Made by a program: the position numbers and the translations under genes. A DNA stretch of 64,000 nt from Massospora cicadina (lineage: Eukaryota; Entomophthoromycota; Entomophthoromycetes; Entomophthorales; Entomophthoraceae). The DNA lies in assembly GCA_022478985.1 (NCBI GenBank), contig JAKSZP010005279.1, positions 248,001 to 312,000 on the forward strand, given 5' to 3'. The notes under the pieces were generated by a model. It searched no databases. It had not been told where the DNA came from and was given only the letters and a program-made list of their open reading frames with translations. This document shows positions 30,831 to 59,319 of this stretch, piece by piece (the stretch's first letter is position 1; every line of letters begins with the position of its first letter).

Positions 30831-33229
30831 TCTAACTTGTGTATGGAAAACTTTAATCACAATATTATGGAAAAATTCCAGTCAAGAGACTTCCTCCTCT
30901 TATTGGGTGAAAATGCAACTAGATGGATTAGTACGTACAATATGATGACTCTATCACAGCCTAAGAGCTTGGAATTCCAGGTGACCTTTGAATTAGTCTT
31001 TCCAATCTTCAATCAAGAATATATTTTGTTTTTTATAATAACATTAGCATTACCATTCATAAACTGCTGAAAGTTTTTATTCAATTAAAGGTCATTTCAG
31101 CAAACTCACACTACGGCTGTACCTCAAACTATGAGGGATCTGTATGGTTCTTCCTACCTAACTACCAACAGTCTGGGTACTGGGGCTGAACAAAATATCA
31201 TCTTTGTCCACCACGCAATTCATCACCTATTATAAATTTTAGGAATACATTATTACAAAGTGGTCCTCAGTTTAAATTAATTAACACCTTACATTATAAT
31301 GTAGTGAAATTCTATGACGTTGCACCGCCTACATTTTTGGTAATCAGATGGCAACCTTGTTATCATCAAAGTTAATTAATGAAGCTGAATTAAATTACCT
31401 TGCTGAAATCTGGGGTCTTGGGTGATTTAGAGGAACAATATAATAACCACTTACAATGTGTTTAATGGATGTACAAAGCGAGTACAACAACCCTCCTCTC
31501 ATTCTGAAGACCTTCTCCAAGCTCTTAACTCCTCCTAGTTGCAACTACTGGTTTATATCAAGACCTATCTTTGAAAATTACAACAGCGTTATCAAGACTT
31601 TTTTGAGAGCAAACATCCCATATCCAGAGGAGACTTTCATACCCAAAGGACCCAAGGGCCCACATGGGCCTAGGGGTCCTGAGGGACCTATAGGTTAAGT
31701 TAGGCTGATGGTCTTGGAGGGTCCTGTGACCATCCAGTACATTTGGGTTCCTCAAACCCAACTCTTTGAGGTTTCTTGGATTATGGAATCAGGAGATACT
31801 AACATGATTTTGGATTTATGTAACCATGTGGAAATCATAGCTAAGGAATTACTTTTTGCATGGATTGTATCCCTGAATTATAGTTTAATGGTGTAAGCCC
31901 TAGATGGGAAATGGATAATTTAAACGAATTTACCAAGGTGACAGATGATTGTTTTAAAATTGCTGAGCAGACCTATGGAAATCTTAAGACATGAGTTGGC
32001 GACTTAAGTATCAGTTTTAAAACTGTACCTCATAATCCAGGCCCTGAACGAGCAGCTTAGTCATAAGGACTCAATAGATTCTCTCAATTGATCTTGGGGA
32101 TAGTTTCAAAAAATTGGAAAATTTTAGCTGGCAAATAAATTGAGTTGTTCATAAAATATATGAGTGGAGACTTCAAAACTGGACTTAACCCTGTCATTGA
32201 CACTCTTTCTGCTTCTCTGATCTCTAGGTTTATACTTAGCTTCCAAGAAAACTTTCCTTATGAGGAGATTATCGCTTCTTTTTCATATGACTATGGGATC
32301 TCAATGCAAGAAACAAATGATCTTCAAAAGGTAAGGCACATCCATCTTGTCTCAGAAGCACACCCAGATAAAATCATGACTCATTATATATGAGAGTGCC
32401 AAACATGGGAACAAATCTAAACTGCTTTGTTTCAGTATTTCAGTAGTATTAAAGCCCTGTCAAACCAAAAAAGGCTTACATGGCTATATATAGACAAAAA
32501 AATTGAAAGTCCAAGCAAATTTTCTAGCCGCAGTTATGATTGCGCACAACCCCTTGGATACCATTATAATTATTGCGTTAGATGATGTCATACCTGATGT
32601 AATCTCCATAAAAATTACATCTCAATGTTCAATTTCACATTATCAGGTTAAAGCTTAGCTTTGTTTGTATTTAAGAGATAAAGGAAGCATTGAATGAAAT
32701 GTCTTTGAATTTATTCACTAATACTTATTGTTAAAGCATCCTCCACCAGTCATCCCAAGTACATGATGTAGAAGCCAAAAAGGATGACTAACGTATATAT
32801 ACCTAGTGTAAGGGTCTGCGTCACAATGCTAAGAAATTCTGAATGAGATGTGCCAAGGAGGCGGAAAAGGGCAGTTAATATGAAAAATGAGGCTCTTCAC
32901 GTTTAAAAACCAAAAACGCATCATAGAAAGCTTTTACTTTACTTACTGGATCTGACGTACTTGCTACTATGAGGAACATAGTATACTTCTCCTTTGACAG
33001 TAAAGAACTTGATATCGCTTACTTTTCCTATGAAAATTACCCAATCTTGTTACCCTAAACTATCCAATTTACAAGCCTGGAAACTCACGTAACTGTTAAA
33101 GTACTCATAAACTTTTTTATTAATAACAGCAGTCTCTCATCAATGTCATTATTTTCCAGTACTGATGAAGTGATCAAAATTGATCTAGATCTATTCTCAC
33201 TATATATAATATGAAACTTCCAGGCTTCA
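30831..33229 (+). pseudogene. gag (and start of protease) of element F0, with collagen-like tract
   Basis: Frames at 30813-31070, 31456-31698 and 32145-32393 cover parts of gag. The middle frame ends in a Gly-X-Y tract (see separate entry) preceded by LRANIPYPEETFIPK; the homologous copies read RANVQPTSEVRV and share this junction. Later, LQKVRHIHLVSEAHPDKIM and WEQI-TALFQYFSSIKALS resemble a capsid segment. No zinc knuckle was recognised. Stops are frequent and AT content high. The LINE 33230-38495 interrupts the region near the protease. Confidence 0.65.
31648..31695 (+). other. Collagen-like Gly-X-Y tract in F0 gag
   Basis: Residues 65-80 of the frame 31456-31698 read GPKGPHGPRGPEGPIG, five perfect Gly-X-Y triplets plus Gly, with Pro at every X position. 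The frame then meets a stop, after which further GGT/GGA codons continue in other frames. The same location in two related elements carries decayed versions of the same tract (39937-40007, 57814-57930), so it is a feature of the family and not chance. Confidence 0.8.
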
Positions 33230-33310
33230 TTAGCATTTCTTTCCCATAACAATAACATTAGTTACTATGATTCAATTTAAACAGCAATTTTTAATAACCA
33301 CGCAGGAGAG

Positions 33311-34430
33311 ATGGGCATATTCAACAAATCCCAATTAAAATGGGCGAAAGCCATAAAAGGCAATGGACAAAACAGTGCGCTTAAGGACAAGAAACGCCCT
33401 GGAGGGGGACCATGAAACATGGACGCCAAAAAACCACAAACTGAGGCACCACCCTGGTTTGTGGAGTTCACCATGAAACATAACCAATACATGAAAATAC
33501 AGAATAACCAACCCTTTTAAAAGGTAGAGCACGGGCTCCAACTCTGCCTAGGTGCCAAGTCTCCAACTCTGTGGGAGAAAGTGTGCGAGGCACAGGCCTT
33601 TCTCTTCCCCTACATGGTGTACGTCAACATCAATCCAATCCAATGCAGTTGGGTCAAATTGGCCTTTGAGAACAAAGAAGATGCAGACACCCCCACAAAA
33701 GTATTCATCAAAGTTGCCCTCCACAAGAGCAAACGAATTGTGCGCACTGTGAGCATCAGATGAAACAAAGCAAACACTTTGTTCATATCCTTTAACTTGC
33801 TCCCTACCACCCTTCCCTTCAAGCAAATTGAGGAGGACCTCTGAGCTGGAATTACCAGCCATGGAGAAATTAAACAACTTGAATTACAGTGGTTTCACAT
33901 GATGCAAACCTGTGCACAGGAAAGGCAATCACCGTTATCCACCCACTCCCTGAAGTGGCCACAGACCTCACAAGAATTCCTCATACAGAAGAGTTTCACC
34001 TCCCAGATGGGAAGGTGTCAAAGCCATTTTGTGTCACACTGGAACGCGCACCGCCTATCTACAGCCACTGCACTGCATTGGGGCACAAGGAACATGCATG
34101 CCCCATGAAGGAGAGCATCATGGCCCCAAACTTCTGCAATGACACCATGGAAGAAGACAACGTAGAATATGGTAAAATTACTGAAGCTAACTACGCCTTC
34201 AATAGGTAGAGGATGGGCACTATCTCCTCATAGACTCAGTGACACCCAAAGCACGCGAGATGATGCAGAAAGCCTGCAAGTGGGAAGCGACTAAGGCTGC
34301 ATCACTTGCAGCCTCTGCCATTGACCCTGGCAAAATTAAGGAAGACGTAGAGGAAACCAGCCAAGACAACCAATCAGAACAGACTGCTCAAGCTGAGGAG
34401 GACATGGAGGAAATTATCCAAGCCATCTAA
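33311..34430 (+). pseudogene. LINE ORF1 (RNA-binding gag-like protein)
   Basis: The first ATG at 33311 opens MGIFNKSQLKWAKAIKG, broken by a stop after 34 codons. Continuation appears in frames 33581-33763 (ENKEDADTPTKVFIKVAL, a possible RRM-like strand-rich segment) and 33889-34209. The latter ends with YSHCTALGHKEHAC at 34060-34101, a CX2CX4HX4C knuckle whose first Cys is Tyr (TGC to TAC). An acidic C-terminal tail follows (34239-34430, EEDMEEIIQAI). ORF1 proteins of such LINEs coat the element RNA. Confidence 0.78.
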
Positions 34431-34790
34431 TTAGAGCAGTACGCCCAAAATGAAAATTTTCTCAACAATGTGACTGAATTACCAAATGGTATCAATCAAG
34501 TAAACTTAGCAGAACAATTAGGCTTCACTTTGTGCAAAAAAGTGAACCCAATTCTCCAAATTTGAACCCCAAAACCATAGAAAAAACTAGTGCATGCACC
34601 GGCCCACCATTAGTCATGAGCAGAAGAATCTGCCACAAATTATAAAAACCACAATAACTGTGAGAAATTGACACGGATTATATGATCAGAAAATGCCACA
34701 GAATATTCTGGCCCATAAACATGAAGCAGGGCTAGCAAAAAGGGTGTTGGGTGTGGGCCAAACGGCCCTCCCAACTGCTCCTGAGGCGCC

Positions 34791-35470
34791 ATGGGAACCT
34801 CAGTGATAATAGGGGTGCTAAACATCGCGGGAGCCAGGGCTCATGCATCCCAAGCCAAAAAGCTGGACTTCCTGCAAAAACCCCCTGTAGATATCTTGGC
34901 CATCCAAGAGACCCACTGCCTACAGGGGGAAGAGGGATCCTGGTCAGCTAGGGTCTCACTATCCTTATCAGTATGGACAACACACAGTGGGGTGGTCATC
35001 AAAAATAACAATAAATAAAAATTACAAACTCCTCCTCATATCTTCACAGTTGCATCCTGGTTGTTTTGATCATAAACCAAGAGGACACAATTTTGATAGC
35101 ATGCATCTATGCACCTTGCACCACACCCAAGAGGAAACAATTCCTCAAAGCCATCCCAAAACTCGCCCTCCCACCAGATACCATCCTAATGGGTGACTTC
35201 ACTGCTGGGATAACCCAAACATGGACTGATGACCTAACCCCATGGGATACCCACTGGGGCACATTAAGTTCCGTGCAATGAAGGCATCCTTAGGCCTACA
35301 TGATACCCTCCCCCCTGGGTCACCACTCCTTCCCAACATGACCTGCCCTAACATATGCGAGGCTACACTCACCTCAATGAGCTGCATCAACTACATCCTC
35401 ACACTAAAAACCCACCGTTCAAACATCTCCAATTTTGCAACAAAAAATCAATTTCTTTGATCACTGACTC
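34791..35470 (+). pseudogene. LINE ORF2, endonuclease domain
   Basis: The frame starting at 34791 reads VIIGVLNIAGARA then ILAIQETHCLQGEEG, the Asn and the catalytic Glu (QETH) of AP-type endonucleases. After a frame change, LIACIYAPCTTPKR and ILMGDFTAGI follow (35066-35281), where GDF-N is usual and Asn is Thr. The next frame (35242-35460) includes SCINYIL, which aligns with the S-IDYIL motif. The domain nicks target DNA for primed reverse transcription. It is interrupted by at least two frameshifts. Confidence 0.82.
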
Positions 35471-36120
35471 GTTTTGGTGCAGCTCTCACCACCCAAACTC
35501 CCACACAGGTGTCAACCTGGAGGAAGCTACACCCAGAAAACATAAAATTTCCCAAATTATCTGAATGGGTCAAACATGAGGCCACAAACCCATAATTCAC
35601 AACCCCATTCATATCAGATCCCATCAAAACCTGGGAAAATTTAAAAACTGAACTAATAAATAAAACTCATCACCTCGCCTCATGTAAGTACACCGCCAAC
35701 ACAGCCACAATCAGGTGCACCTTGGCAGAACTGACCACCTCGAGCTCAACATCCTGAAGTCCAGCTACAGCCCCGCCTGGGGGCACAAATGGGCGGAAAT
35801 ATCCGCCCACCTAAACACCCTCAATTTCGAACACCACACAGAATAAAAGTATTGAGAAAAGGAAAGTTCATAAAAGAAGGCGAAACCTGCTCAACATACT
35901 TCTTCCATCAATTCCACTCCCACTTCAACCAGCCCACATGCACACAAGTCCGCAAAGTTGATGGCATCGTGGTAACTGACTCAACGGAGATCAAGATGGA
36001 AGTACACTGCTATTACAATGAATTATCTTGTGACACCCCAACGGAACCCCAAAAAATTAAAGATTTTATACACACTGCCAGAATACAAAGCACATCGCCA
36101 TACTACAACCTCTAAACATA

Positions 36121-36900
36121 ATAACGCAGGAGGAGCTCTGGGACACAGTTTGTGGTGCACCAGGTAGGAAATGCCCAGGGCTTGATGGGATACCTTACAA
36201 ATTTTACAAAAAATATTTTAAGCAAATCGTCCCCATCCTCTTAGCATCAATGAACCAGTGCCTGCTGGAGACACACCTCCTGCCTGGCGTTCAGAACTCC
36301 TATGTCAAAACCCTGTTCAAAAAGGGTGAAAGACTGGACCTGGCCATCTGTCTCCCAATTGCACTCTCTAACACTGATACAAAACTACTCACAAAATTTT
36401 AGCAACTAGATTAGGCACAATAGCCTCCATTATCCTGTCACCCAATCAGTTTGGGTTCATACCAGGGCGTTCAATCTGGACTAATATGCACTCCGTTGTC
36501 AACATATGTCAGTCCAAAGCAACTGGAGCCATGGTATTCTAAGACCAGGAGAAGGCATAAGTCTGCGTTAGCTGGCCATACCCAAAGGAATACCTAAGCG
36601 CCTGAAAACTCCCATCCAGATTCATAAACTGGGCGATGCTCCTTACAGAATCAGCATCCATGGCTGTATGCAGTCCTGGCCTTTTAACCAACAAAACCAC
36701 ACCACGCAGAGGGCTCAAACAAGGGGACCCCTCATCCCGCTGCTATACAACTTCAGCTTTGATACACTCCTTCGCATCACTGACTCATGCCTCATGGGCA
36801 TAACCGCACAATGCCAGTCACCAGTCAAGATACTAGCCTTTTCAGATGACTGCGTAACTAGTATAGCTAACAATAATGATGCCGCCAACTGAAACGCACA
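36121..36900 (+). pseudogene. LINE ORF2, reverse transcriptase domain
   Basis: Reading across frames: GRKCPGLDGIPYKFYKKYF, then CLPIALSNTDTKLLTK, SPNQFGFIPGRSI (with shifts), TRGPLIPLLYNFSFDTLLRI and ILAFSDDCVTSIANN. The FSDD box at about 36838-36852 corresponds to the catalytic (F/Y)xDD. The homologous minus-strand LINE at 46.6-49.1 kb has the same boxes in better order, which supports the alignment. Confidence 0.85.
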
Positions 36901-38380
36901 CTATAGGTAGATTCCATTATGAGCAACGCGTCTCTCAACAAAAGAAAAAAGGAAAAAATCCTCTTAAGAAAGTACACTAACAACTGGGCTAAAACACCCA
37001 AACCTCACACCCCCCCACAAAAGAACAACCCTCTCATCCTTCCCTTTGCATCACCTCCTATAACCAACCCTGTCCTCCACCTTAGGATATGGCTGGAAGC
37101 AGGGGGTATGTCAATGAGACAATTAAGAACAACCTACTACAATGGATGTTCAACTGCGTCGCCTCCCTTAACAGAAAATCCTCAGAAGTAATGGAGCGAG
37201 TAACAGTTGCCAACTCACTCATCCTCCAAATGCAGTGGTTCCCCACACACGCAATATACTTCTCATCTACTTTCATGTCCTCAATCCGCGCTTATCAAAG
37301 GGTGGCTGTGGCCTGGGACCTGGCCACCTGTACGGGTGGAAACACTCTTTGGCCCACGCTCTAGCGGAGGCATGGGTCTAATAGTCTTTGAGGTCCAAGC
37401 CAACCATATGCTGGGCACCTGGATAAAGAAAGTTCAAGCCTTAGACCTCCCACAACAACACTGGTCCAGAGCGGCGAGGGCCAACTTTGCACAGGTGCTC
37501 AAACTATCTAACCCACACAACCCGTCCAGCCTGCTCACCTACCTTGTAAATTACCCCAATGCAGCGGGCCAACATGAATCCCTATACACTTCAAACGTCT
37601 CCTCTGCACCATTCGGCACATGAGGTGGTTCGTCACAATAACAGGCATGATTCAGGTAAGGGGAAGGACCAGAGCCCACTTCACACTAAAGAATCCAGAG
37701 GACCACCCCCAGAGGGACAAACATGACGTGGCCCCATCATTTCAAGAATCGACTACCTTGTTGCTTTAGACATCCCATATGATCTCACAAAACAGAAGAC
37801 AATATGGAGGCTAACAAACAATCCGCTTCTCCAGACAAGGGTAAGAGCTAGCATATGGCGTTGCCTCAGAAGAACCTACAGAACAACAGATCGCTCCAAC
37901 TCTCTTCATGCAGAGTGCGCAGTGCGTGGAGGGGATGGCACCCCACCACTACCTTGAAGCATGCCCCCATCTAGAGCCATATAACGGGAAGTTGCGCGCC
38001 TGCTAAGGACCCAAAATAACCAGAAATTATCAATCTCCAGGAGCCTCCTCGCGCTCCAACTTGAATCCCTGATACCACCTACCCTCCGCTCCCTGAAAGT
38101 TACCATTGTAATGTGGACAATCCACACTATAGTACTGGATGCTTTCAAGGGAACCCTACCCACCATCCGTGGGACAACCAGCAGGTTCCAACTACACCTA
38201 CTGAAACACTTCCAAGCCTGGCTATATGGATACATGAGGCTGAAGCAACAACAACTTGTTGAGTCATGGTTTCCAGTCTGATTTCTGCACATGGATCCCT
38301 TCCTCCACACCTGCTCCATAACAAGGGAAACCCATAAGAGTAGCGCACTCAACCCCCTATACCTGGCAGTACTAGCTGGC
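36901..38380 (+). pseudogene. LINE ORF2, C-terminal region
   Basis: The region after RT contains frames at 37089-37364 and 37207-37623 with LFGPRSSGGMGLIVFEVQAN, then WSRAARANFAQVLKLSNP. The minus-strand LINE reads LFGSKRNGGMGLTNYVEKA and WARTARYNFTRALQLRNP in the same place. Further on, RTYRTTDRSNSLHAECAV and ACPHLEPYNG match its CAICGQYGSLDHHLGQCP region, a C-terminal zinc motif found in many LINEs, here with damaged Cys. The minus-strand open frames 37906-38382 and 38145-38348 are shadows of this region. Confidence 0.75.
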
Positions 38381-38511
38381 AACAGGGGTAGCTAGTCTAC
38401 TCTGGGGTGCCTAATTTAGTTACACTTCGCCTCACCCTATCCCATTATGTATTTCAGTATTGCCCGCCCCCTGGTCGGCTTACCTCATTTAAATAAAACT
38501 TCCAGGCTTCA

Positions 38512-38662
38512 GTTCACCTGATATAGAGGGTGCTTACTCAACATTACCCCTTTTTTGGTATATACCTTTATTATGAAAGCGCTAGATCTTGAAAATCCCA
38601 GCTATGATCTTCTGTTGAAAATACAATTGATCTGCAATTCTTCTGTCATTAGTCACTATACT
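38512..38662 (+). pseudogene. End of element F0 protease
   Basis: After the LINE the host sequence resumes with LENPSYDLLLKIQ (about 38590-38630), matching LENSSYDLLISTQFLVEF in element F1 at 42530-42590. This shows that the LINE and F1 are both inserted in the protease and linker region of F0. F1 begins at 38663. Confidence 0.65.
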
Positions 38663-39107
38663 TGTTAGGAGACGCATTTAAATCACTTTTGATAAGAACC
38701 CAAACTTTGATTAGCTAACCCTTGACAAGGGAACTGTCACCTAATGGATCCATTAATTAGGACATAAATTTTAAGGCTACTAAGAGACTTAGATATTTTA
38801 TAATTCCATCATTGTGTACAAAGAGAAGAATCCCTTTACATACTTGGGCAAAGCTCCTAAAAATATTGGGAAAAATCTTGCCAATCAAGGGGCTCAATAT
38901 CCTGGGTGAAGGTGTGTCCCATCAAAGACTATAAATATCCCCTCAATTAAGTAAATAAGTACTTAAAACTATATCTTGTTTAGTTTAATTGTTGCAATGT
39001 TCATTTTTTCCCAAGTTATAGAGAATCCCACTAGGAAGACCGCTGACATTAATATGACTAAATATCTAGCCTTTGTAAGAACCTGTCAACAAACTCCAAA
39101 AACACAA
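38663..39107 (+). repeat. 5' LTR of element F1
   Basis: Starts TGTTAGGAGACG and ends AAAACACA. Patches such as AAACTTTGATTAGCTAACCC, the AAGTAAATAAG region and AATATGACTAA align with 45741-46181, though divergence is large. A related, more diverged copy lies before F2 (about 54931-55385). Confidence 0.68.
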
Positions 39108-39111
39108 TACT

Positions 39112-39131
39112 GGTGATTTATTACAGGTACC
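39112..39131 (+). other. Decayed primer-binding site of F1
   Basis: TGGTGATTTATTACAGGTAC resembles TGGTGCTCACTACAGGGGGC with one insertion and several substitutions. The position four bases after the LTR end fits. Confidence 0.55.
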
Positions 39132-41400
39132 TTCTAAAGCCACCAGGTGTAGACTTACTTCCCCAATGACAGATAATTCCAGTGGAAACGAAATTCAAAA
39201 ATAGAGGAAATTATGAGTATGAACAGATGGTCCACACCAACAAAAAACTAATACCTGTCCAAATTATGTGAGTGATTTGCAATTTAGAGCGCAAAAACAT
39301 TCACCCGTCTAGTCCATGATGATACAACACATCTTAAATCAGCGGAAGTAGATAAGAGTGTGGAAGCTTTACTTTATGGATCTCTATGCCTGTGAGGATG
39401 ATCCAATCGAAGTTGTTTCACCCAGGTTCAGAGGAAGTGATACACCTATACACCAAGGCCACCCTCAAAGATACTGCGGTGCAAGTTTTCCAATTAGTTA
39501 TACCTCTGAATGTTTGTCCATCCTACTTTCCACCATCAGCTGCAGCTTATGAGATTGCATCATATGGAGTACCAAAGACAATTATTTTATCAGCAGCTTC
39601 ATTCCCAACTCCTTAATTATATGAGTCTGTTTTCAATTTCACTTGACAAAATCAAGAAGCTACTTTTGAAATTAAAGAGAAATTAATGATTTACAGAACA
39701 AACTTTTTAGATTATTAACAGAGTTGATGGATATTTTTGTAATAAATCACTCAGCAGTTAGCTAATGTCTCAGAAAATATGCACAGTGGCTTGGAACAAG
39801 CTGTGACAAGATTGTTATCTTAGTTGAATAAACAACAGCAAACTAAAAACTCCAAATTGAGGAGTTAACTAATTTGACTTGACATCTCAATGAAAGAGCT
39901 AATGTCCAACCAACTTCTGAGGTGCGTGTTTGAGAAGGGCCTCCTGGACTTGCTGGTGAAAAAGGCCACAAGGCCCAGAAGGACTCAGAGACCCAAAGAG
40001 CCTCAGATATTTTTGAGAAACCTTTACACATTGAGCCAACCTATGATGAAGACCATGCATCCTGGACTTAGAACTTGGAATGACAATTGGGGGGTCTCAT
40101 AGAAGTCGAATGGACATTTAAGGAAACTATCTTAATGATGAATTAACCTTAACTGCACTTCATGATAAATTTTCCACTATACACTAAATAATAAGACATA
40201 ATCACTATTCAAAAAACTCATATAACTACTTTGATACCAAGTTTAATAAATTTACCTCCTAGAGTCCAGAAATTGGAGAATTAACAAGATGACATTTCCA
40301 TAAACTTGTAGATTAGGCTACCTAAATTCTAAAAATGCACCAGGATATAAGTTCTAGGGCTTCCATCACTCACATTAAAATCTGGGCTATAATTTTACTA
40401 AAAACTCAACTTTTGAAATCAACTTGATCAAACTTGCATGATCAACATTATTGAGACCGAAAATTTAAAAAATGGTAGACCCTCAAACTCAGCTATACAT
40501 GTCCTCTATGAGCTTGCCAACTCCTTTAAGCATAACTTTAAGGAAAAACGTCCCTGATACAGAGAAAATTAAGATCTTCCTATTTGTATACAAAGGATCC
40601 ATGAAGCTAGTCCATAACAGACAGATAATATAAGACATCCAAACATTTCTTTGCGTTAGCGCCTGAAAATTAGTGATGCCTTACTTAAAAGAATGAACCT
40701 CTTGGGATCTAGTTAATGTGGTTTTAAAAGAACTTGGATTCAACTTTACCCTATCTAATTGTAAGCAAGCCTATGCGCATACATCCAAAAAATGAAGAAT
40801 CCTATTAAGAATTTGCTAACCATTTATACTAAAGCCCAGGATTTAGTATACTGTGACTGAAAACCTTTTAAGATGCAATAAGCTTTAGGATATCTAATTT
40901 CTCTTTTTACTGAAAACTCATGCTTCATTTCTAAGGAGTCAAGAAGATTCTCAAATTTATCCTTGACATCAGAGAGGCTATCAAAGTATTTTCAAACCGG
41001 AGATGCGTCATCCCTCATTTAATAAAGGTTTGTAACATAATATTCATGCCATCAAACAAACCCCAAAGTCTAAATTCAGACGAGACTCCTGATCCTATTG
41101 TAAGTTTTTAATCATCAAGAGATTCAGTGGTGGAAGAAGGAATCAGATGAGATGGAAAAAGAGGTTTCAGCCTAGGGCATGAGGCTCCCTATGCTGATGA
41201 ATCACCGCCTCAACAACTTACTTATAACCCCCTAAATCCCAAGTGCTTTATCATCTCTGCTTCCAATGACATGACATCCACAACACTATAGGTGTATATT
41301 GATTCTTCAACTCCTCTTATTTTAATTCAGAAAATTTTCCAACACCCTTAATAAGCCTATTATACCCAATGCTACCTATTAAATCCCTCACTTTAGATCT
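39132..41400 (+). pseudogene. gag of element F1, with collagen-like tract
   Basis: The frame 39386-39616 aligns with the start of F2 gag at about 55.65-55.9 kb (ALLY, HPG/HPD, then a -YFPPSAA-YE- segment). A helical, Gln- and Leu-rich stretch at about 39820-39900 (LNKQQQT in one frame, QIEELTNL in another) precedes ERANVQPTSEVRV and the Gly-X-Y tract. The part after the tract (40.0-41.4 kb) contains capsid-like fragments but no readable zinc knuckle. Stops occur every few tens of codons. Confidence 0.62.
39937..40007 (+). other. Decayed collagen-like tract in F1 gag
   Basis: The first frame reads GPPGLAGEKGHK (39937-39972). After a one-base deletion the adjacent frame reads GPEGLRDPKSLR (39972-40007), where two expected Gly are Asp and Ser, both explained by single G-to-A changes. 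Eight triplets are therefore recoverable. The tract directly follows RANVQPTSEVRV, homologous to the segment before the F0 tract. Confidence 0.75.
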
Positions 41401-41461
41401 TTTGTCACTCATGTTGAGATAGTTGTGCATAAAATGAAGGTTATAGCTTATTGTTGACACC
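41400..41461 (+). pseudogene. Protease of F1, first half up to the active site
   Basis: The host reads KVIAY, then ATTGTTGACACC (IVDT) ending at the insertion point of the solo LTR. After the LTR, with ACACC repeated, the sequence continues GG/GCCCCAGTCAACATTATC (G, then APVNII with one base slip). The LTR therefore landed on the DTG codons of the protease. Confidence 0.75.
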
Positions 41462-42355
41462 TGTCATGGTTGGATGACATTATAGTAGGAACAGATGCTA
41501 GAGATAAGGCTGGGTGACAGGAGGCCCTGAAGGTGAAACTTCAGGCTCTTCCTGACCTGAAACACACCTTAGATCAACGCTGGGTGCAAGCCAAGCATGC
41601 CCAGGTTGATGCTAATGGGGTGCAAAACGCTCAGCCTCTTAACTCGGCTCATGCCCTAAAACGAACAATTTATGTTATTGACAAAGATGGTTCAATTTGC
41701 TTGGTTGGAGAGCAAGGGTTCGAGTCCTACTCTAGCTATGAAATTTTAAGCTCAGGTAAAATATGGCTTCAATCAATTACTCAAGTGAAGGCACTTTCGG
41801 TGTATTTTACTAAAATGGATGGAAGCATCTGTTTATTGGAGCGTCAAGGCTTGGGCACACTTCTGCAGAACCTGAATTTCCCCAGCCCACTTTAAATATG
41901 TTTTTGCGACCAACATTCCTTGTTGGTCAACTTTTCTTAAATAAAAATACCCGTTTTTTTACGTTTTACTTATGGTTCCTTGGGCTAACCTGGTGGTGGA
42001 CCTCTTTGGGGAGGTCTCCAACTATGTGGGCCACTACCTTCTATCGCAATTTACCAAAATCCTAGGTGCTTACTTGGGTCACCCAGGTCCCCTCCAGATC
42101 GAGGTACCCAAGCTCCCTGACGCCAAGTTACACTTGATTATGGACTCCCCTCTGGGGTACACTCAAGTTGTTATGTTTCTATCTTACCTGGTCTTATACG
42201 TTGCATTCTACACCCTGGCCTGGGATACCTTTGGCACAGGCACCGTTTGAGGTGTCTTCTTACCCTTTTTCTTAATGGCTAGTTCCCTAGTAATGTGGGT
42301 TTGCATCCCACATCACCTTGCTGGGAACGAGAGAGTTACAGACACTCTCTTGACA
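41462..42355 (+). mobile_element. Solo LTR of the E family, 894 bp, TSD ACACC
   Basis: Starts TGTCATGG, ends CTTGACA, and is flanked by ACACC at 41457-41461 and 42356-42360. It is homologous along its length to 60191-61034, the 5' LTR of element E. It contains a 120-codon open frame (41533-41895) also recognisable in the other copy, and a perfect 8-bp-stem hairpin (41908-41928) followed by a polyadenylation-like AAATAAA. Because no internal sequence remains, it results from LTR-LTR recombination. Confidence 0.9.
41908..41928 (+). other. Conserved hairpin in E-family LTR
   Basis: GACCAACA, a 5-base loop TTCCT, then TGTTGGTC forms a perfect 8-bp stem. The identical 21-mer occurs at 60638-60658 although the surrounding LTR sequence has diverged. 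It lies about a dozen bases upstream of an AATAAA-like sequence, so it may affect 3'-end formation or another RNA function. Confidence 0.7.
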
Positions 42356-42360
42356 ACACC

Positions 42361-42650
42361 GGCCCCAGTCAACATTATCTCCTTCTGCCTTATAAGGCAT
42401 ATTAAGATCACTTCCAACTGTAATAACACTTTAGAATATGAAACCGCTGGACCCTTCTGCACTAGTTCCTTTAAGGGCTTATTCATTGTTGCCCATCCAA
42501 TTTGGGTCAATAGTAGTGTCCACGCCAGCAATTATCTTGGAAAACAGTAGCTATGACTTACTTATAAGCACACAGTTTCTGGTTGAGTTTGACACCAACT
42601 TTAGTTATATGATATGTATTTCTCCATATTGGATTGCGTTCTGCTAACAT
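42361..42650 (+). pseudogene. Protease of F1, second half
   Basis: Continues from the DTG codons with APVNIISF, then frame 42438-42647 shows LRAYSLLPIQFGSIVVSTPA and YDLLISTQFLVEF. The latter matches the flap and C-terminal part of the intact protease at 24858-25439 (LGAYSALPIKFGSIIVS, EVFIGTDF). Confidence 0.78.
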
Positions 42651-43900
42651 CTAGAACCTGCTTGAAGATAAAGGAAAGAGAAATTTCTGTAGTTCTATTA
42701 AAGTATTTAAAATTCATTTAAAGGCTGAAATTTCAAGTAGCGGGGCAAAAAATTTGTTGCCTCCATTTATGGATGACGTCCAATAAAAAAGTCTATATTT
42801 TCTGTCAACAAGGTCGTCATCCCTCCTAAATTTCAGATTCTAGTGGAGACGGAAATCCAAGTTTCTATCCTTTCTGCCTATCTATTGGATGTTTATGGAG
42901 AAACCAGTTATTCTATACAATAGCCCTTGACTTGTCATGCATACTCAATCCTGCGTATCAAGAACCTAATACTGTTTTGATGGCTAATCTTACCCACCAA
43001 CCTCAGACTGGATTCTAAACCATCTGATAGTCTATGTTCACACTTTACCAATTGACCAAATTGGTTTCATCAGGGGTTGTGGATCTCTTACTGAATTAAG
43101 ACTGGTAAATTCCTCATCATAGTGCATGCAGAGGTAAAGGTTGACAAATCTATTACTCTTGATCAACAAAATATTGCATATTCCTTATTGAGAAGTACGC
43201 TAATATAATTCAAATACTACAACTTTTGGAATGATGAAGGGGTCTAAAGAATGGTGTGACCAGTGATAATCAACTCATTTGGGCAGGCTATATCAAAATT
43301 TTAAAGTCAATTAAGACCAAGTGACTAAGGAGTTGATAGTTATTGGAGGCTGTCCTTTTGACGCCTTCTCAGAGACCAAGGGCCACTACCCTACTGTTTG
43401 GTCTGCAAGAAATATGAGCACATTGAGTAGTGATGAATTACTGGTGACTGAATGCACTAACTTAGATGAGAAGCTACCCACCATCCTTAAGTTTCAACTC
43501 TCTCAGACTTTTAGCTGAATCTTAGTTTTTTTCTTCGCCATAGATCTTGAGTAGTGGGTATTAGCATAACACACTTGCTTTTTCAAAATATAAAATGATT
43601 TTTAATCTCCAGTGAAGGGTTATTTATGATGATATATACCTCAGAGGTTGTACAACACCCTGACAAATTTCCAACGGGAAATATACAGAATTTTGGAAAC
43701 CTCAAAATTTCCTACATACTATTTTATTCAAATGATGATAAAGTGTTCTCCCATAACTTCAATGAACATATTAAGCGCCTATAAAAAGACTTTGATTAAA
43801 AGTGATCTTTTCCTGAAGCTGAATTTTGCCAAGTGTAGTTTCTTTAAGAAGATAAGCAATTATATGGCCCACAAATCTACTCATTAAAGAATCTCTCCAT
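42651..43900 (+). pseudogene. Linker and reverse transcriptase of F1
   Basis: After the protease, ILVETEIQVSIL (about 42839) marks the linker. RT is strongly decayed. Around 43712-43780 the reading YILFYSNDDKVFSHNFNEHI fits the active-site box (Y--DD) and following helix, and frame 43648-43887 continues LKLNFAKCSFFKKISNYM, the thumb motif LKL---KC-FF---V-YLG. Stops and frameshifts are too many for a continuous model. Confidence 0.65.
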
Positions 43901-44039
43901 TGCCTAGTAGGTTATTGTCATACAAAATATGCCTCAGCTAAACTCTTATCTATATAGTTTTTCCTATCAATTGTCAGTTACTATTAAAAGTTCATTCCTC
44001 ACTTTGCTGAAATTGCTGAGCCAATGGTATATTTACTTC

Positions 44040-45720: not shown

Positions 45721-45740
45721 TCAAGATCTTGAAGGGGTAT

Positions 45741-49058: not shown

Positions 49059-49071
49059 TAATATCAGTGTT

Positions 49072-51014: not shown

Positions 51015-51054
51015 GTCTCTTGTTACATGAAGAATATTTTTGTGCAATTTTTAA

Positions 51055-51330
51055 TTGAAAAGTTTTGTCTCAACAAAATTTTATAAAATCTTTACTATTG
51101 GAGATACAATGTATGAAATGGCAATATCAGCCAATTATCCCAAGGAAGGCTTGGACATCCTCCTTCTCATTAATTCTTTACTCCTAATTATGACAGTGTC
51201 CTTCATTTTAACTTTGCTCCTTTTTGGTGTTTTGTCCCAAGAACAAAATTGTGCTTTCCTATATATTAATTTGAATTTTAAAAGCCCCAAAGGAATCCTA
51301 GTGGAGGCAGCTTTTTGGGATAAGGCCTAA
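51055..51330 (+). other. Open frame of 91 codons, unknown
   Basis: The frame has a very hydrophobic middle (LDILLLINSLLLIMTVSFIL) that could be a membrane segment. No family is recognised, there is no conserved second copy, and the surroundings are decayed repeat. I regard it as a chance frame. Confidence 0.2.
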
Positions 51331-51339
51331 GGTACTGCC

Positions 51340-52050
51340 CTTACTGCACTAGGGTTGCGCAAATCTGAGCACTACTAAAAGTGGACCTGATCGCAATTTG
51401 GGTTTATTTTGCACTACCCTAAAACTGACATATGTCTGCACTGTTTATTACTGAGCAGAACGTCTGCACCATCCAGGACAGGCGATATTCCTCTCATCTC
51501 AATTGTGAGAGACAAGACCTGATGACCCTCAGGATTAAGGCCCCTGAGAAGGGAGAAGCTGAAGCCCTTCCCTTTCTCGCCTGCTTTTTAGTGGAGTTAT
51601 GCTCTCCAGCCCCTTTTTGTCCAGAAAACCTTGAAGTCCTTTTGGATCAAGCGTTAATTTCTTGCATAAATACTTTTGCTACCAGATGGCTCATGACAAC
51701 CAATCTGGCAGCTAGCTGAGCCTCAGGTCAACTCGACAAACTGCAGCATTTATTGTAGGCAGGTGCACCAAAGCGCAGCCAACCATGATTGTCTCTCCCT
51801 TGTCCTGGGTACGCAACCATGCAACTTCAGCTCATGGATAAGCCGCTTAACATGAATCATGATTGACTCATACTCCCCCCTTCCTACTTATATCTATCCT
51901 TGGGGAGTGGTAAACACGCAAGAACAAGTTGGCATAGTCATCACTACTATCTCGCACCCCTTTCAGGCCACTACATGACCCACCAATGCACCTCTTTAGG
52001 TTCTGGTGTTTACTACTCGCCCATGTTTCCATGGGCCTAATATGATTACG
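51340..52050 (+). other. Unresolved GC-richer segment with a 95-codon frame
   Basis: The frame 51432-51719 reads through mixed composition (CTIQDRRYSSHLNCERQ, APEKGEAEALPF) and is followed by more coding-like but interrupted sequence up to about 52.05 kb. The GC content contrasts with the flanking AT-rich DNA, so this is probably a piece of a younger transposon. No motif allows a family assignment. Confidence 0.35.
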
Positions 52051-53790
52051 TTCTTAGCTTCGCTTTATATTAGTGTTTGAGTTTCAAAGACCATATTATC
52101 CAGCTTTTCCTTAGATATGTAAATTGGTCCTTTTTAAATAATTTAAAATAGTTGTTTGGGGACATTTTCCCATTAATTAATTATTTAATATATATGTTAG
52201 AAACCAACCCTGATGTTTATGATAATTAATATGTATTTTGGAGCAATCTTTTGACAATGTTAATATATATCTTTGATATAGAATATTAAGTTAATAACCA
52301 ATTATACTTGTATTGATAGGCTGAGATACCAAATTGATTAGGGATGTCTAGTTGAAAGTGCTGAAGTGGTGTAAATCTTAACTTGACAGTAGCTAGTGAA
52401 TCTTTTAATCAATGCAACACGTTGATGGTAAATGTTCCATTACTAAGCATGGCCACTGGCTTATCAAGAATAATTTGCAGGAGCTAACTAAAGGCATTGG
52501 AACACACTATTTTGGAAGTCAGCCCATAAGGGTCATAATCTAGGTGGTGATGGATGCCAATTAGGTGAATGTATATTGGAAGAGTTAGCCATTGAGATGT
52601 GTTTTCTTTTTGGGTAGTAAATTTGTTTTTGATGAATAACTATTTAGGTTGATATAACAAAGAGTTAATTAGCTAATGAGATTATGTAAATACCCAGTAT
52701 TTCAATCATTTGTTTTATTATTATATAGATCTAGAAGTTAACAACTTAAAATACTTATTCTTTTAATAAATTTGAGTCCTAATTCATATATTTCTCAGTT
52801 AACTCTAGTGAAGTAGATATCACTTGCTTGTAAGAAGATACCTGAGTGAAAAGAAAGATTATAAGCAGACTCAAGTGGCTAATTGTTGTCATACACTAGC
52901 ACTTTTTTATTTCTTACACTCATTCAGCCAGACTGTGCAATAATCTTAAAAATTCTACAATTTATTTATTAGACTCAGAGAGAACCTCAATATATGTTAA
53001 AGGTGCTTTTGAGAGATTCTAGTAGACAATGTAATATTATATAGATATAAAGATACCTGGAATCATAAGGCCTCCAAATTTTAGTCTAATGAAAAGTAGA
53101 ATTTTTCAGGGGACTTTCAGGATCTTAGTGGCATCCAAATAGGCTTAAAATTCTTTTTGTTACTACGCTTTTTCTTCTGGATCTTCAGGACTCAACTACA
53201 TTCTCCAGATTACTCTGTTAAAGTCCATATTAGAAAAACACTTTGATACTTAAAGTCACTTCAAAGCATCACTGATTTTCAGCAATTAATAAGAGTTCTT
53301 TATTTTTGAGATTCTCAAGGCGTTAGTTTATAACAAAACATGAATTGCCATCATTCTATGTTATCAGAAATAAGGATAGGGCCCTTGGCTCTTGAAATGG
53401 CATTTTAGTTGGCGTCCTATAAATGTTGTGATTTCATGGATATGAGTTCATCTTTACACTTTGATTTCTTATATGGTTGGTCCAGATGAATTAACGTCTT
53501 TAGTATCCATAAAAGTATCTCCTCTAAATCACACATGGTTATAGATACTTACCTATATATTTTAAACTACTCACCAAACCTATTAATTATAGTTGTTCAT
53601 CTAAAGTTGCTTCTAGGTTCTGAGTTCATTCTTAACTGTAATAGCGGTTATCTTAAAACTATACTGTATGATACTATCCTTGCAGTGGCTAAAGTTTTTC
53701 TAATCCCAATGCCATGTTTTCTAGAGTAATTTATTTACCATGACAATGTTCTAAAGCTATAATTTTGTCAAAGAATTTACTTAAAGATCT
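52051..53790. other. AT-rich sequence, no gene seen
   Basis: Neither strand shows a retroelement motif or a long frame. The 64-codon frame 53535-53729 is hydrophobic and unrecognised. By position the segment could hold the missing 3' parts of elements A or F0, but I see no sequence support for that. Confidence 0.5.
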
Positions 53791-53795
53791 TGATT

Positions 53796-54500
53796 TTCAA
53801 GGAGAGTAATTATAGCACTCCTGTTCCTGGGGAGGTGGTAGGAAAGACTTCCACACAACATGGGATCAACCTACTAACAATAGAGAAACAAAGCACCTAA
53901 GAGAATGGTGGTGTCCAAAGGCCCTAGGGCAAAGGTATCCTCACCCACGTTATCTGAGAACTCCTGGAGATCAACAAAAAGTACAAAGAATATATACATA
54001 TTTTAAAATTAACTGAAAGGGTTTATTATAACTGAGTTGACCAACAGAGAAGTTTAATCATTAAATATTACTAGTAACAATCAGGAGGACTCATAATTCT
54101 TTGGGTGAGGCACTGCGCCCAAGCTTAACCAATAAATGCAACTTTCCATCCATAGTCATACTGTAGTTTGAATAAGCCTGCTTTCAATTAATTGACTGGA
54201 GTTGTTTCCAATTTAGAATAAAATAAATTGAACGGGTTTTGAAGCTCTGTCCTCCACCAAAATGCAAATTTCTATCATAATTTTTCAATTAGCTAGTGCA
54301 TTTTAACGTAGCAGATGTAACGCACATCCAATTATTATGCTCACCCCCAGGGCCAATTTAGGCATAGCTTGCCTTTACCCAACGCTGATCCAGGGTGTAC
54401 TTCAGGTAAGGCTGGACTGCCAACTTTGTCCTCTTGGCCTCATCACCGCCAGCACTATCCTTACAATCTTTCCCCTCAATTATGTCATTTAATCATTACA
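53796..54500 (-). mobile_element. Solo LTR of the E family, 705 bp, TSD TGATT
   Basis: The minus strand starts TGTAATGATTAAATGACATAA and includes CTGGATCAGCGTTGGGTAAAG, homologous to the LTRs at 41462 and 60191. Its other end, AAGGAGAGTAATTATAGCACTCC on the plus strand, matches the reverse complement of the LTR end of element E. TGATT lies on both sides (53791-53795 and 54501-54505). The terminal TG has become TT at the left edge. Confidence 0.85.
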
Positions 54501-54505
54501 TGATT

Positions 54506-54930
54506 CTCAAAAACTTCTTAGGATTATATATTTAAGAGCATTGATTTTAATTAAATTTTCTATTGCATTAATATTTATTTCCAAATGGAGTTCAAATCAT
54601 AATTATTACTTGTATTTTCTCAGCGGAGCTCACAGCATGAAGTAACATTAATTATTTTTTCTCACAGTCTATCAACATTATAAATTAAAACTAAGATGTT
54701 AAAGTTTTTTTATGAGTTTATTATTAAGCTTCTTAAACATTAAAATCATCTGGTAGCTCAGTAGAGTGATTTATTTTTTTGGTTACATAATTTAAAAAAT
54801 CAGACGTAACTGCATACCAAGTATAAAATTATAATGGTTATTAACAAACACAATTGAGAAGTGTAACACAAGTCTTCTAGACTTGATAGGTAAATTTGGA
54901 TATGCTCTAAATGCATATGTAGATTGGTCC
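54506..54930. other. AT-rich sequence, no gene seen
   Basis: No frame or motif was recognised between the solo LTR and the LTR of F2. Confidence 0.5.
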
Positions 54931-55385
54931 TGCTGTGGTGTTTTTGGTAAAGATCAAGTTTGAGTCATTTTGGACATGGATAAACCCTTGGACAGTTCTC
55001 CAACGATCAATGGAAACTACCTCCTTAGTTATCCATTAATCATGCCATTGTTCCTAAAGATATAAAAAGACAAATTAATATGAGATTCTCTAAAGGGCGT
55101 AAAGGGTCTCATCCCTTCAATACCTAAATCTAAGTATCCCTCAAAATAGGAAAGATCTTGGTAAAAATAGTTTATTATACTCATTGAGTGATAGCCCTCC
55201 AAAGATTATAAATAATTCCTTGTTTAAGTAAATAAAGTAAAACTTACTCTATCTTGTCTGATATAGATTTTTGCCTAAGAGCATTTTCCCCTAGTAAAAA
55301 TCGTATAAGAAGCTTTCTAAAGCTGATTTGACAAATGATTGTTTAGCCCAAAAGGATCCAGATAATAAGTTTATGGAAATTTTAT
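54931..55385 (+). repeat. 5' LTR of element F2 (approximate)
   Basis: Begins about TGCTGTGGTG. Patches align with the F1 LTRs (AAACCCTTGGACAG, GGAAAGATCTTGG, AAGATTATAAATA, AAGTAAATAAAG, TATCTTGTCTG). The primer-binding site expected at the end is no longer recognisable. Boundaries are uncertain by tens of bases. Confidence 0.55.
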
Positions 55386-56199
55386 AAAATAATGCTTTCA
55401 GCCAGATGTCCTTCTGAGGTTACCAGGTGAAGATGCATCTTCAAAAAGATGAGTATTTCCAGTGGAGAAGACATCCCCACAAGAAAGGAAAGAATGAGTT
55501 TAGTAAGATGGGTCCACCTAACCAACAAGGAACCCCTTACTAAAACATGTGAGTCTATAAATCTATTGAGCCAATGATATCTAATCTTTTGGCCCCTGAT
55601 GATGCGGCTTTTCAAATCCAATTAACTAAAGTAGCCCAGACTGTGGAGGCTTTACTTTACAAGACTCTACAACCTGAAGGAGAACTAATAAGAACTGTCC
55701 ACCCTGATTTCACTTGAACTAATGCACTTATGCACTTTAGTCTTTCTTTTGAGCACAGCTCAGGGGCTTCCATTCCATGTCATATCTTTGTCTACTTTTC
55801 CATCCTGCTCTCCACCATCAATTAAAGCTCTTATGATTGCACCACATAAAATACAAAGACAAAATAGCCTCACTCAACAGCTTCATTACTAACTCCTAGA
55901 ATTATATGATACTGAATCAAAATTTGGTTGGGAATATTGTGAGGCTATTGTGGACCTTTGAAGAACATCATTGAGCTGAAGAGCCAACTAATTTATATTG
56001 ATAATAAGTTGATGGGTACTTATGTGACTTATTCATTTGGCAACTTAATAATACCTCTGTAATCCTATAAAAACAACTAGAATGAGGTATGGCTGAATTA
56101 GTAACTCAGTTAACTAGACAACAACAAATATATGAAACTAATATTGAAATTTTTACTAAGAATGCTTTCAGAAATCGCCTTAATCTAGGTGAAGTCTCA

Positions 56200-57760
56200 A
56201 CTTTAGGGTTACCATACACAATTGCTTTAATTGATGTCAACTTACCTATTATTATTGATATTGTTTTATAATTACTATTTAACTAAATTAGGGTTAAAGC
56301 CTAATATTACTGCTATAATTTATCTATAGATGTTCTATTGGGCATAATTTTATAATCATAAATACTGTTGGGATTTTACCCTTTTAAGTTTAAGCCTTAT
56401 ACTGGGTTAAATCTTGACAATTCCCTTAAGGCCAAGTCTTGAGGTAATAGGCTAAAAGCCTATTAGGTTTAATTAATGATTTACCAAAGGATAAGGAATA
56501 CTTTGGTGATATAGACCCTATTAGGACAATGTCTTATCCATTCTGTGATGAAATCATTTTTATCTGATCCTACAAGGTGCATTGTAGAAACCTTGCTATA
56601 ATATTACTATATTTAGTATTATGCCTTCAATACCAATTCATATATAATATCTCTAATTAAATATCAGCATATTAGCTTATATTTAGACCTATTATCAATG
56701 ATCCTAAAATAGTGTCCCTATTATTCAAATAAACATATATGATTACTCGCAACTTATAATCTTATTTTTATTTATTTTCATAATATATGAGAGCCACTTA
56801 AGGCTTTTTGTCCCTGAAGTAACTAGACCATGTCCAAGGGGCCTTGACGTTGGGACCCAAGTCTAGACTATCTGCCGGAGAATGCAAATAAGGACATCTG
56901 ATCTGAGTATATCTCCCTTAATTGGATTAACCCAAATTGAGGCCAACCCTTCATTTAGACTAATATATCTAATAATATATAAAGATATTGATAGTCACAT
57001 ATACCATATTAATAATATTCATTGCCTCCATATAATCCAGCTTAAGAGCTATACAATCTTGAGAAAGCAAACCCTTTTCCAAGTAATCATCTTATATTTT
57101 TAAGCACTAAGCAGTTTCCATTAATAAGGCAGTGTTTATGACCTAAAAAACTCTGAATAAATTTCCCTGTTAGTGCCCCACTGGACAATGAGATAGAATA
57201 TAATGTACATGCCAGATAGTTAGTCATCCTGATATTAGGCCTGGTATTGTATTCAGTGTTTAACTCATTTACCCACCTCACTAACCACTCACGCCACATA
57301 TTATGCTTTATCACCTATTGGCCTTCTAGTAAAAAAATAATAGAAACCACTTAACTGTGTTACCATTATTTTATCTCAGTCTAGCCTTCCACAATGAATC
57401 ATGATCTATTCCAACTCTATGTCTGGAAAGAGTCATCGCTTCCTTTATTCCTGAAATTCCTTCAACTCTCACACTTAGTATCTAACTATCACTCATCAAT
57501 ATCCTGATTTTACATATGGTACTTTAAATAAAAACTAACATTTTTCTTAAATAAATACTTCTTACAACCAATATCTTTATTACAAACTCCAATCTTTAGG
57601 ATGGAAAAAATATTTTGCCACAAGAATTGCTAAGAACCTCTGAAACTTGGAATATTAAGTTTCACCAAGTTGTCCTTCCTGGCACATCTAAGTAGCCAAC
57701 CAATGAATCATATATCCTTATATTTGATGCAATAGAGCGCAAAAATGAGAAATGTTATGA
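56200..57760. mobile_element. Probable insertion in F2 gag, unidentified
   Basis: Comparison with F1 shows about 1.56 kb of extra sequence here. The minus-strand frame 57087-57314 and the plus-strand frame 56882-57103 have no recognised function. A plus-strand LSIDVLLGIIL reading at about 56.32 kb faintly resembles a protease end. No target duplication or LTR ends could be fixed. Confidence 0.35.
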
Positions 57761-57813
57761 CAGCTAAATAATAGGCCAACGCTCAATCTGCCTATGAAAT
57801 GTGCGTTCAAGAG

Positions 57814-57930
57814 GGACCTCCCAGGCCTGCTGTCCCCAAAGGCAAGAGGGTCCTGAAGAACTCATAGGCCCATAGGGCCCCTAAAGGTTTATAGGCACCT
57901 CCAGGACCCCCTGGAGATTCTTCAAGTATA
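57814..57930 (+). other. Decayed collagen-like tract in F2 gag
   Basis: Begins GGACCTCCC (GPP) and, in shifting frames, gives GKRGPEE-like and then APKGL-APPGPPGDSS. Several Gly codons are changed to Ala and one stop is present. Its position after the NRPTLNLP segment matches the tracts of F0 (31648) and F1 (39937). It appears to be the longest of the three, about 13 triplets. Confidence 0.65.
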
Positions 57931-59319
57931 GTGCCAATCTGTAACAAGGACCTTAAATACTGAATTTTTAAGCCTAGAATGTCAATTGAGGGGAATGGAT
58001 TGTGGATATAAATGGACGTTAAGTAAGAACTATATTGGCAGTGGTCTAACCTTGAATGCCCTCTCTGATAAAGTGGCTACATACAGCAAGCGTATTCAGA
58101 TATGGCCTCTTTAAAGCAAGCCCTAATATACTCTTGACGCCAAGATCAATTGACTTACTTTATGACTCCAGGATTTATTGATCTGCAAAAAATATTGCAG
58201 AAACTCGCCAACATGAATAGAAAAATAACAAATATACCAGGCTATCAGTTCTAAAGCTGAAACTCATATGTGAATGATTTAAGTCAGAATCTGCAAGAAA
58301 ATCTTACTTTTTTATGAATATTAGGAAAATCAATACCACATGGCTGACCCAATTGAAACGGAGCCATCAGAAACAGGGAGACCCTAGAACCCCACCAAAC
58401 AAGATCTATCTGAGACTGCTAGTAATTTAAAGCCTTATGAAGGAGAAGTATGTCTTAGTATGGATAGCATAAATACCTTCCTCTTTGTATATTAAGGAAT
58501 ATTAAGATAGCCACAATAAGCAGAAGGTCAAATACATACATACATGTCTTGACAGCATTGCCCAAGAAATAATAATGTTTTACTTCAAGGAATGCACTTC
58601 TTGAGATCAAGTAAAGGCTGTCCTTATAAAGAATTTGGCAGCAATTTGATCCTGCCCTTTTGAAAGCAAGACTTTATGCGCATTTAATCGAAAATAGTAG
58701 AATCTTTTATAGATTTTTTAATCACATTTAATATGAGGTCCAGGCCTTAGCCTCTTGGAACCAGGTTACCCTGGAAAATTTAATAGCTGCGAAAGTATCT
58801 GCTTCTCCTTCAACCATACCTTTTTTCTTCGCTTCTAAGGAACCAAGAAGCTCCTTATATCAATCCTCAGTTAGATGGGGATACTATGGGACTTCCCAAA
58901 CCAGAGACACGTCACACCTTATTTAGTAAAGGGCCATGACCTCATATCTATGCCTTTGAGTGAAAAATGAGGTCTCAGCCCAAACATGATCCCTGTTACT
59001 ATTTAGGGGTTTCAATCATCAGAAGAGTAAATTTCTGGAAGAAGTCATATGAGGCGATGAAGAGGCATCAGCTTAGGGCGCGAGGCTTCCTATGGTGACA
59101 TATATACACTCAACAACTTATGACAGATCCTTTGACACCTGTTCATTTCTTTGTTTCTGCTCTAGATGGAAATGACATCCCCAATACTCTCATTAGAAAA
59201 AAAATTGATAATTTATCTTAATCTGTCTTAGGTAAACCCATATATTCTCAAAAATACTAGGAGTCCAATGCTATTAATAGATCATCACTTTGACCTGATG
59301 TTATTTGGGTAGAGGTAGT

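What the first reader, a model, noticed from the sequence alone, without database searches (positions are those of the whole stretch)
30831..58000. Collagen-like Gly-X-Y tract shared by the gag of three copies of one retrotransposon family
The three F-family elements each carry a Gly-X-Y tract at the same place: five perfect triplets in F0 (31648-31695), eight recoverable triplets in F1 (39937-40007) and about thirteen decayed ones in F2 (57814-57930). The segment just before each tract is also shared (RAN-P--E in F0 and F1), and in F1 and F2 a Gln/Leu-rich coiled-coil-like stretch lies upstream. Coiled coil plus Gly-X-Y is the layout of trimeric collagen-like proteins such as phage fibres and bacterial collagen-like proteins. 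A gag with a triple-helical module would be unusual; I do not know of a described case, which is not proof of novelty. In F1 several Gly losses are single G-to-A changes, so the tract was once purer.
Basis: partly seen in the sequence, partly recalled or inferred. Interest (0 to 1): 0.8.

Follow-up and report, generated by a model that had tools for sequence, protein, structure and literature searches.

The report
Collagen-like stretch in dead retrotransposon gag
Three long-dead Ty3-type jumping-gene copies each carry, at the same place in the region of their shell-protein gene, a short stretch that would spell a collagen-like protein segment, an unusual feature whose function can only be guessed because no intact copy was found.

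Summary
A frameshift-tolerant Gly-X-Y scan of the + strand ranks the three named places first (31648-31695, 57849-57921, 39937-39972), above the best of 30 shuffled windows. The tract lies 677, 682 and 704 bases upstream of homologous capsid-region sequence in F0, F1 and F2, so it sits in the N-terminal extension of gag. F1 and F2 are one family (64% of aligned bases). F0 is a distant relative: no DNA similarity, but a significant collinear capsid-region match and a Ty3-type primer site. Three other elements of the window lack the tract in the corresponding part.

Weaker than stated: coiled coils are only suggestive; F1 and F2 share a one-base frame offset inside the tract, so their ancestor may already have been broken; no selection on the frame could be shown; PF01391 is not reached (11.8 of 27.2 bits); no relative of this gag was found. 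Best reading: a decayed Ty3-like lineage whose Gag carried a short collagen-like module, perhaps a trimerising spacer. Host unknown.

The parts
30811..30830 (+). F0 primer-binding-site-like sequence, identical over 20 bases to that of element E (18727-18746)
   Evidence: 0 mismatches; none of 100 shuffles had a match with up to 3 mismatches
31503..31620 (+). F0, Leu/Gln-rich heptad-like stretch upstream of the tract (in another frame than the tract)
   Evidence: 0.71 hydrophobic at a/d, shuffle P 0.113, so only suggestive
31648..31695 (+). F0 Gly-X-Y tract GPKGPHGPRGPEGPIG
32325..32450 (+). F0 capsid-region piece homologous to F2 58518-58646
   Evidence: E 0.006; 25.8 bits; 0 of 200 shuffles of the 2-kb segment and 0 of 60 whole-window shuffles reach it
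39117..39862 (+). F1 N-terminal gag extension, homologous to F2 55397-56148
   Evidence: 481 of 727 aligned bases identical
39937..40007 (+). F1 Gly-X-Y tract, with a one-base frame offset between its halves
40613..41345 (+). F1 capsid region and what follows it
   Evidence: collinear with F2 58512-59251
41461..41945 (+). repeat interrupting F1 between capsid region and protease (also at 60190-60674, and on the other strand at about 54118-54506)
42302..42608 (+). F1 protease remnant
   Evidence: 42471-42590 hit by the proteases of M and E, E 7e-9 and 3e-8; 42302-42472 by a second, 26% identical piece; end
43602..43914 (+). RT remnant downstream of F1, taken as F1's by position and strand
   Evidence: 43602-43793 E 3.5e-6; 43636-43914 E 0.058
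55397..56148 (+). F2 N-terminal gag extension
56149..57757 (+). stretch in F2 with no counterpart in F1 (about 1.6 kb, presumably an insert)
   Evidence: alignment stops at 56148 and that resumes at 57758, next to each other in F1
57814..57930 (+). F2 Gly-X-Y tract, decayed, spread over two frames
58512..59251 (+). F2 capsid region and what follows it
59306..59792 (+). F2 protease remnant
   Evidence: 59607-59795 E 2e-6 and 2e-8; 59306-59419 E 0.03 and 0.003
13398..29160 (-). comparison element M (LTRs 13398-14539 and 28020-29160, 92% alike; decayed gag with long N-terminus; no Gly-X-Y tract), with element E nested in it
18229..24165 (+). comparison element E (LTRs 18229-18725 and 23667-24165, target duplication ATGCG; short gag N-terminus; no Gly-X-Y tract)

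Best explanation
F0, F1 and F2 are old, decayed insertions of a Ty3-like LTR retrotransposon lineage. Its Gag had a long N-terminal extension (about 500 codons between the primer site and the first recognised capsid piece in F0), and about 225 to 235 codons before that piece the extension carried a short collagen-like Gly-X-Y segment of roughly 5 to 13 triplets, placed between two helix-like, possibly coiled-coil, stretches. Shown: tract beyond chance, same place, gag side of the element, absent from the corresponding parts of three other elements of the window. Inferred: that it was translated in the Gag frame of working copies. Inferred with less certainty: that, as in other short collagen-like proteins, three chains joined by the flanking helices wound the tract into a stiff triple-helical spacer that held Gag trimers together or held the N-terminal part away from the capsid shell.
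For: Top three places of a scan over the whole + strand. Collinear with the capsid region: 677, 682, 704 bases (coordinates). F1-F2 homology runs through the tract with E 4e-92, and of the three frames the Gly-X-Y frame gives the best protein similarity over the tract block (1.41 against 1.17 and 0.53 per residue). The F0 capsid-region match exceeds all 60 shuffled windows. F1 runs gag, protease, RT on one strand. Residues are collagen-like in kind: in F0 all five X positions are Pro and Y holds K, H, R, E, I; Gly uses all four codons and Pro three, and Tandem Repeats Finder lists no array there, so this is not a fresh DNA slippage repeat. The gag-side parts of M, E and the element starting at 10906 reach at most 3, 3 and 2 Gly in 6 triplets, against 6, 4 and 4 in F0, F1, F2.
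Against: F1 and F2 share a one-base offset between the halves of the tract, so their ancestor may already have had a broken frame there. Permutation of mismatches gives no frame conservation in the tract block (P 0.54 in the Gly-X-Y frame; first half alone 0.13). The heptad signal is weak. PF01391 scores 11.8 bits against a cut-off of 27.2 in F0 and is not listed at E up to 1 for the tract frame of F1 or F2. F0 has a stop directly after its tract. No protease or RT was found for F0. No homologue of the F gag was found in the protein database (6899 candidates, none at E up to 10), though the query was broken and short exact words are needed. Five to thirteen triplets are short for a stable triple helix without hydroxyproline (general knowledge).
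Confidence: 0.55

Rival explanations
1. The tract was translated in Gag but was a flexible Gly/Pro-rich linker between domains, with no triple helix.
For: Short length; weak heptads; PF01391 far below cut-off.
Against: Gly is strictly every third residue for six codons in F0 and four in F1, and X is Pro 5 of 5 in F0; a mere linker does not need that period.
Confidence: 0.3
2. Inherited from a dead or non-autonomous source: F1 and F2 descend from a copy whose gag was already frame-broken within the tract, so in that branch the tract was passive DNA.
For: Shared one-base offset within an ungapped 124-base block; no frame-specific conservation.
Against: 42 gaps separate F1 and F2 over 1376 aligned bases (43 blocks), so two independent single-base losses near one place are not excluded; F0, a distant relative, has an unbroken tract.
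Confidence: 0.35
3. Chance or a short GC-rich repeat (GGNCCN) with no protein meaning.
For: The pattern also reads as Gly-X-Y on the other strand in F0 and F2 (23.9 and 14.1), as a GGNCCN run would; F1 exceeds the best of 30 shuffled windows only narrowly (15.2 against 14.7).
Against: Three places at the same distance from the capsid region are the top three of the whole strand; mixed codons; no tandem array; in F0 the + strand Y residues are K, H, R, E, I, on the other strand S, L, C, L, L.
Confidence: 0.05
4. A piece of a host or other gene for a collagen-like protein captured by the element (transduction).
For: M, E and the element at 10906 lack the tract, so it was gained or lost in one lineage.
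Against: F1-F2 homology runs on through both flanks without a visible longer captured domain; introns or foreign flanks were not searched for.
Confidence: 0.15

Closest known systems
Ty3-like LTR retrotransposons (Metaviridae)
   Same: gag region, then aspartic protease, then RT on one strand in F1; F0 shares its primer site with the Ty3-like element E
   Different: long N-terminal gag extension with a Gly-X-Y tract; E has only a short N-terminus and M a long one without the tract
Collagen-like proteins of phages, virophages, polinton-like viruses and bacteria (PF01391)
   Same: short Gly-X-Y tract with Pro at X and charged residues at Y. A paper on cryptophyte polinton-like viruses describes collagen repeats in fibre proteins (PMC12220804, passages seen)
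   Different: here in the gag region of a retroelement, much shorter, below the PF01391 cut-off
Entomophthoralean fungal genomes (Entomophthora muscae)
   Same: Ty3 elements make up 39.1% of that genome and an enrichment of PF01391 among features distinct to E. muscae is reported (PMC10515909, passages seen); four retropepsin families named there also match the M protease here
   Different: the passages do not connect the two and discuss the collagen domain with secreted proteins; the retropepsin families are general; nothing here shows that the window comes from such a fungus. A lead only

Membership tests
Ty3-like LTR retrotransposon | primer-binding site next to an LTR | tested here: inconclusive
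   F0 has the site at 30811; no LTR pair was seen for F0, F1 or F2 in the self-comparison; E and M have LTR pairs
Ty3-like LTR retrotransposon | aspartic protease followed by RT on the gag strand | tested here: met
   F1: protease 42302-42608, RT 43602-43793. F2: protease only. F0: neither found
Ty3-like LTR retrotransposon | integrase after RNase H | not tested
   not looked for in F elements
Retrotransposon gag (capsid, zinc knuckle) | match to a gag capsid or CCHC profile | tested here: inconclusive
   three frames each of F1 40501-41102 and F2 58401-59002 gave no gag profile at E up to 1; capsid assignment rests on position and a weak match to the M capsid region (E 0.61); CCHC seen in E (0.0047) and M (0.039), both below cut-off; in F0 only a weak CCHC-like piece at 34066-34101 (E 0.032)
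Collagen triple helix repeat (PF01391) | score above Pfam's gathering cut-off | tested here: not met
   F0 11.8 bits, E 0.21, cut-off 27.2; F1 and F2 not listed in the frame of their first tract half; their second-half frame was not submitted
Collagen triple helix repeat (PF01391) | Gly at every third residue over a run | tested here: met
   F0 six in a row, F1 four in a row in one frame; F2 only across frames
Trimeric coiled-coil plus collagen-like protein | coiled coil next to the tract | tested here: inconclusive
   heptad test on seven F segments: shuffle P 0.113, 0.118, 0.449, 0.06, 0.0995, 0.048, 0.064
Trimeric coiled-coil plus collagen-like protein | trimer and triple helix | not testable with these tools
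   needs expressed protein

The most novel reading that the evidence does not exclude
A lineage of Ty3-like retrotransposons evolved a Gag whose N-terminal extension is a miniature collagen: helix, Gly-X-Y, helix, forming trimeric stalks on or within the virus-like particle. As far as my searches show, no collagen-like module is described in the capsid protein of a reverse-transcribing element. In repeat-rich genomes it could make transposon Gag count as host 'collagen-domain' genes.
Probability: 0.3. Interest if true: 0.75.

Novelty: new variant of a known kind. Interest (0 to 1): 0.5.

Why it matters
Gag proteins are thought of as helical shells with zinc knuckles (general knowledge); a triple-helical segment in one would be a new way to build or extend such a particle. 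It would also warn annotators that PF01391 hits in genomes full of Ty3 elements can come from transposons rather than from secreted host proteins.

Tried and rejected
Nothing found: tRNA genes and Rfam families in the window; homologues of the 81-residue F0 tract piece and of the F1/F2 gag with the tract masked; viral contigs with the primer site, the RT and an RT alignment; bacterial and archaeal contigs with the RT; phage records with the RT. Bacterial and archaeal contigs with the RT alignment gave 7 loci in MAGs, best 48% identity, not identified further; none of the 7 holds four Gly triplets in a row. The RT of element E finds 35 proteins at E up to 1e-20, 28 of them 60 to 76% identical, all without names, so the host stays unknown. 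That the primer site fits a tRNA-Arg-like 3' end was recalled, not tested. A programmed frameshift as cause of the shared offset in F1 and F2 was weighed from recalled slippery-site rules and dropped; no tool tested it. No structure prediction was run: the segments are broken and without relatives.

Papers: eight searches, seven with collagen or Gly-X-Y terms and one on Entomophthora Ty3 terms; passages of four papers seen, the rest as listings only.
Full report
What was checked. The window is CpG-poor (observed/expected 0.28). Of its six open frames of 150 codons or more, all submitted to Pfam, two pass a cut-off: an RT at 21372 and a protease at 24861-25439 minus; two more have retroelement matches below cut-off (zinc knuckle at 25520-26125 minus, protease at 61576), and two only unrelated matches below cut-off.

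The tracts. A plain scan for four or more Gly triplets in a row finds five runs in six frames: F0 31648, F1 39937, a Gly-rich run at 61352, one at 34764 on the minus strand, and the mirror reading of F0. A scan that tolerates frame shifts ranks F0 (24.5), F2 (17.3, its peak at 57849-57921, without the first part of the tract) and F1 (15.2) first on the + strand; the fourth is 12.0, and 30 shuffled windows peak at 14.7. On the minus strand the mirror readings of F0 and F2 lead with 23.9 and 14.1, so the pattern alone does not name the strand. Against shuffles of the local 141 to 181 bases the counts reaching the observed score are 0, 0 and 1 of 2000 for F0, F1 and F2 (all). I chose the scores after seeing the tracts, so these figures are somewhat flattering; the longest-run test (6 against at most 5 in 60 shuffles) does not depend on weights but speaks for F0 only.

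The elements. F1 and F2 match each other over the N-terminal extension (481 of 727 bases), the tract and the capsid region (886 of 1376 bases; blastn E 4e-92). Downstream of F1 lie a protease (42302-42608) and an RT remnant (43602-43793); downstream of F2 a protease (59306-59792). F0 has no DNA similarity to either (best E 0.015 at a non-collinear place), but a capsid-region piece of F2 finds F0 32325-32450 with 25.8 bits, more than any of 60 shuffled windows (maximum 22.7) or 200 shuffles of the 2-kb segment (maximum 21.6), on the right strand and at the right distance: tract to capsid piece 677, 682 and 704 bases in F0, F1 and F2 (subtraction). F0 starts with a 20-base primer-site sequence identical to that of element E. 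So F0 is a relative, not a demonstrated copy of the same family.

Comparison inside the window. Element E (LTRs 18229-18725 and 23667-24165, target duplication ATGCG) lies inside element M (LTRs 13398-14539 and 28020-29160, minus strand). M has a primer-site-like start that shares nine bases with it (TGGTGCTCA), and a long gag N-terminus with a heptad stretch (shuffle P 0.02) but no Gly-X-Y. E has none, nor has the stretch after the primer site at 10906, whose capsid I did not identify. The tract therefore marks the F lineage as far as this window shows: three of the six elements looked at.

Frame. Across the 124-base ungapped tract block the Gly-X-Y frame gives the highest F1-F2 protein similarity, but in both copies the second half of the tract reads as Gly-X-Y one frame over. 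Either the common ancestor already had a broken frame, or both lost a base near the same spot. Permuting mismatches shows no frame conservation in the tract block. Of the 14 stretches tested from the tract on (two are halves of the first), each in three frames, two results of 42 lie below 0.05 (0.015 and 0.039), about what chance gives; of 12 in the N-terminal part none lies below 0.05. The F1-F2 pair thus behaves like two neutrally decaying copies and says little on selection.

Coiled coils. Leu/Gln-rich stretches exist on both sides of the tract, but the heptad test is weak for each. I picked the segments by eye.

Outside the window. No relative of the gag was found. RT relatives are unnamed. 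The only literature lead is Entomophthora muscae, where Ty3 elements and PF01391 are both reported as expanded or enriched (PMC10515909); nothing here shows the window comes from such a genome.

Judgement. That the tract is real and belongs to the gag region of a Ty3-like lineage I hold at about 0.8; that it was a working, translated Gag segment at about 0.6; that it formed a triple helix at about 0.3 to 0.4.

Noticed in passing
18229-24165: Ty3-like element E with LTRs of about 497 bases (96% alike), target duplication ATGCG, primer site TGGTGCTCACTACAGGGGGC and RT open frame 21372-21839.
   Followed up: yes
13398-29160: LTR pair of 1.14 kb (92% alike, TGTTAAG...AACA, flanks CCATT/ACATT) bounding a minus-strand element into which E is nested.
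   Followed up: partly
1053-2525 and 7837-9310: Direct repeat of about 1.47 kb, 82% alike, without TG...CA at the aligned ends; nature not worked out.
   Followed up: no
41461-41945, 60190-60674, about 54118-54506 (minus): A repeat of about 480 bases that interrupts F1 between capsid region and protease and follows the protease in F2; these two 72% alike.
   Followed up: no
17103-17372: Tandem array, unit 75 bases, 3.6 copies.
   Followed up: no
61576-62079: Open frame of 167 codons with an aspartic protease match below cut-off (E 0.004), perhaps a further retroelement type; RT-like pieces at 62624-62946.
   Followed up: no
10906-10925: A third primer-site sequence (one mismatch); the frame after it has a heptad stretch (shuffle P 0.004).
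   Followed up: partly
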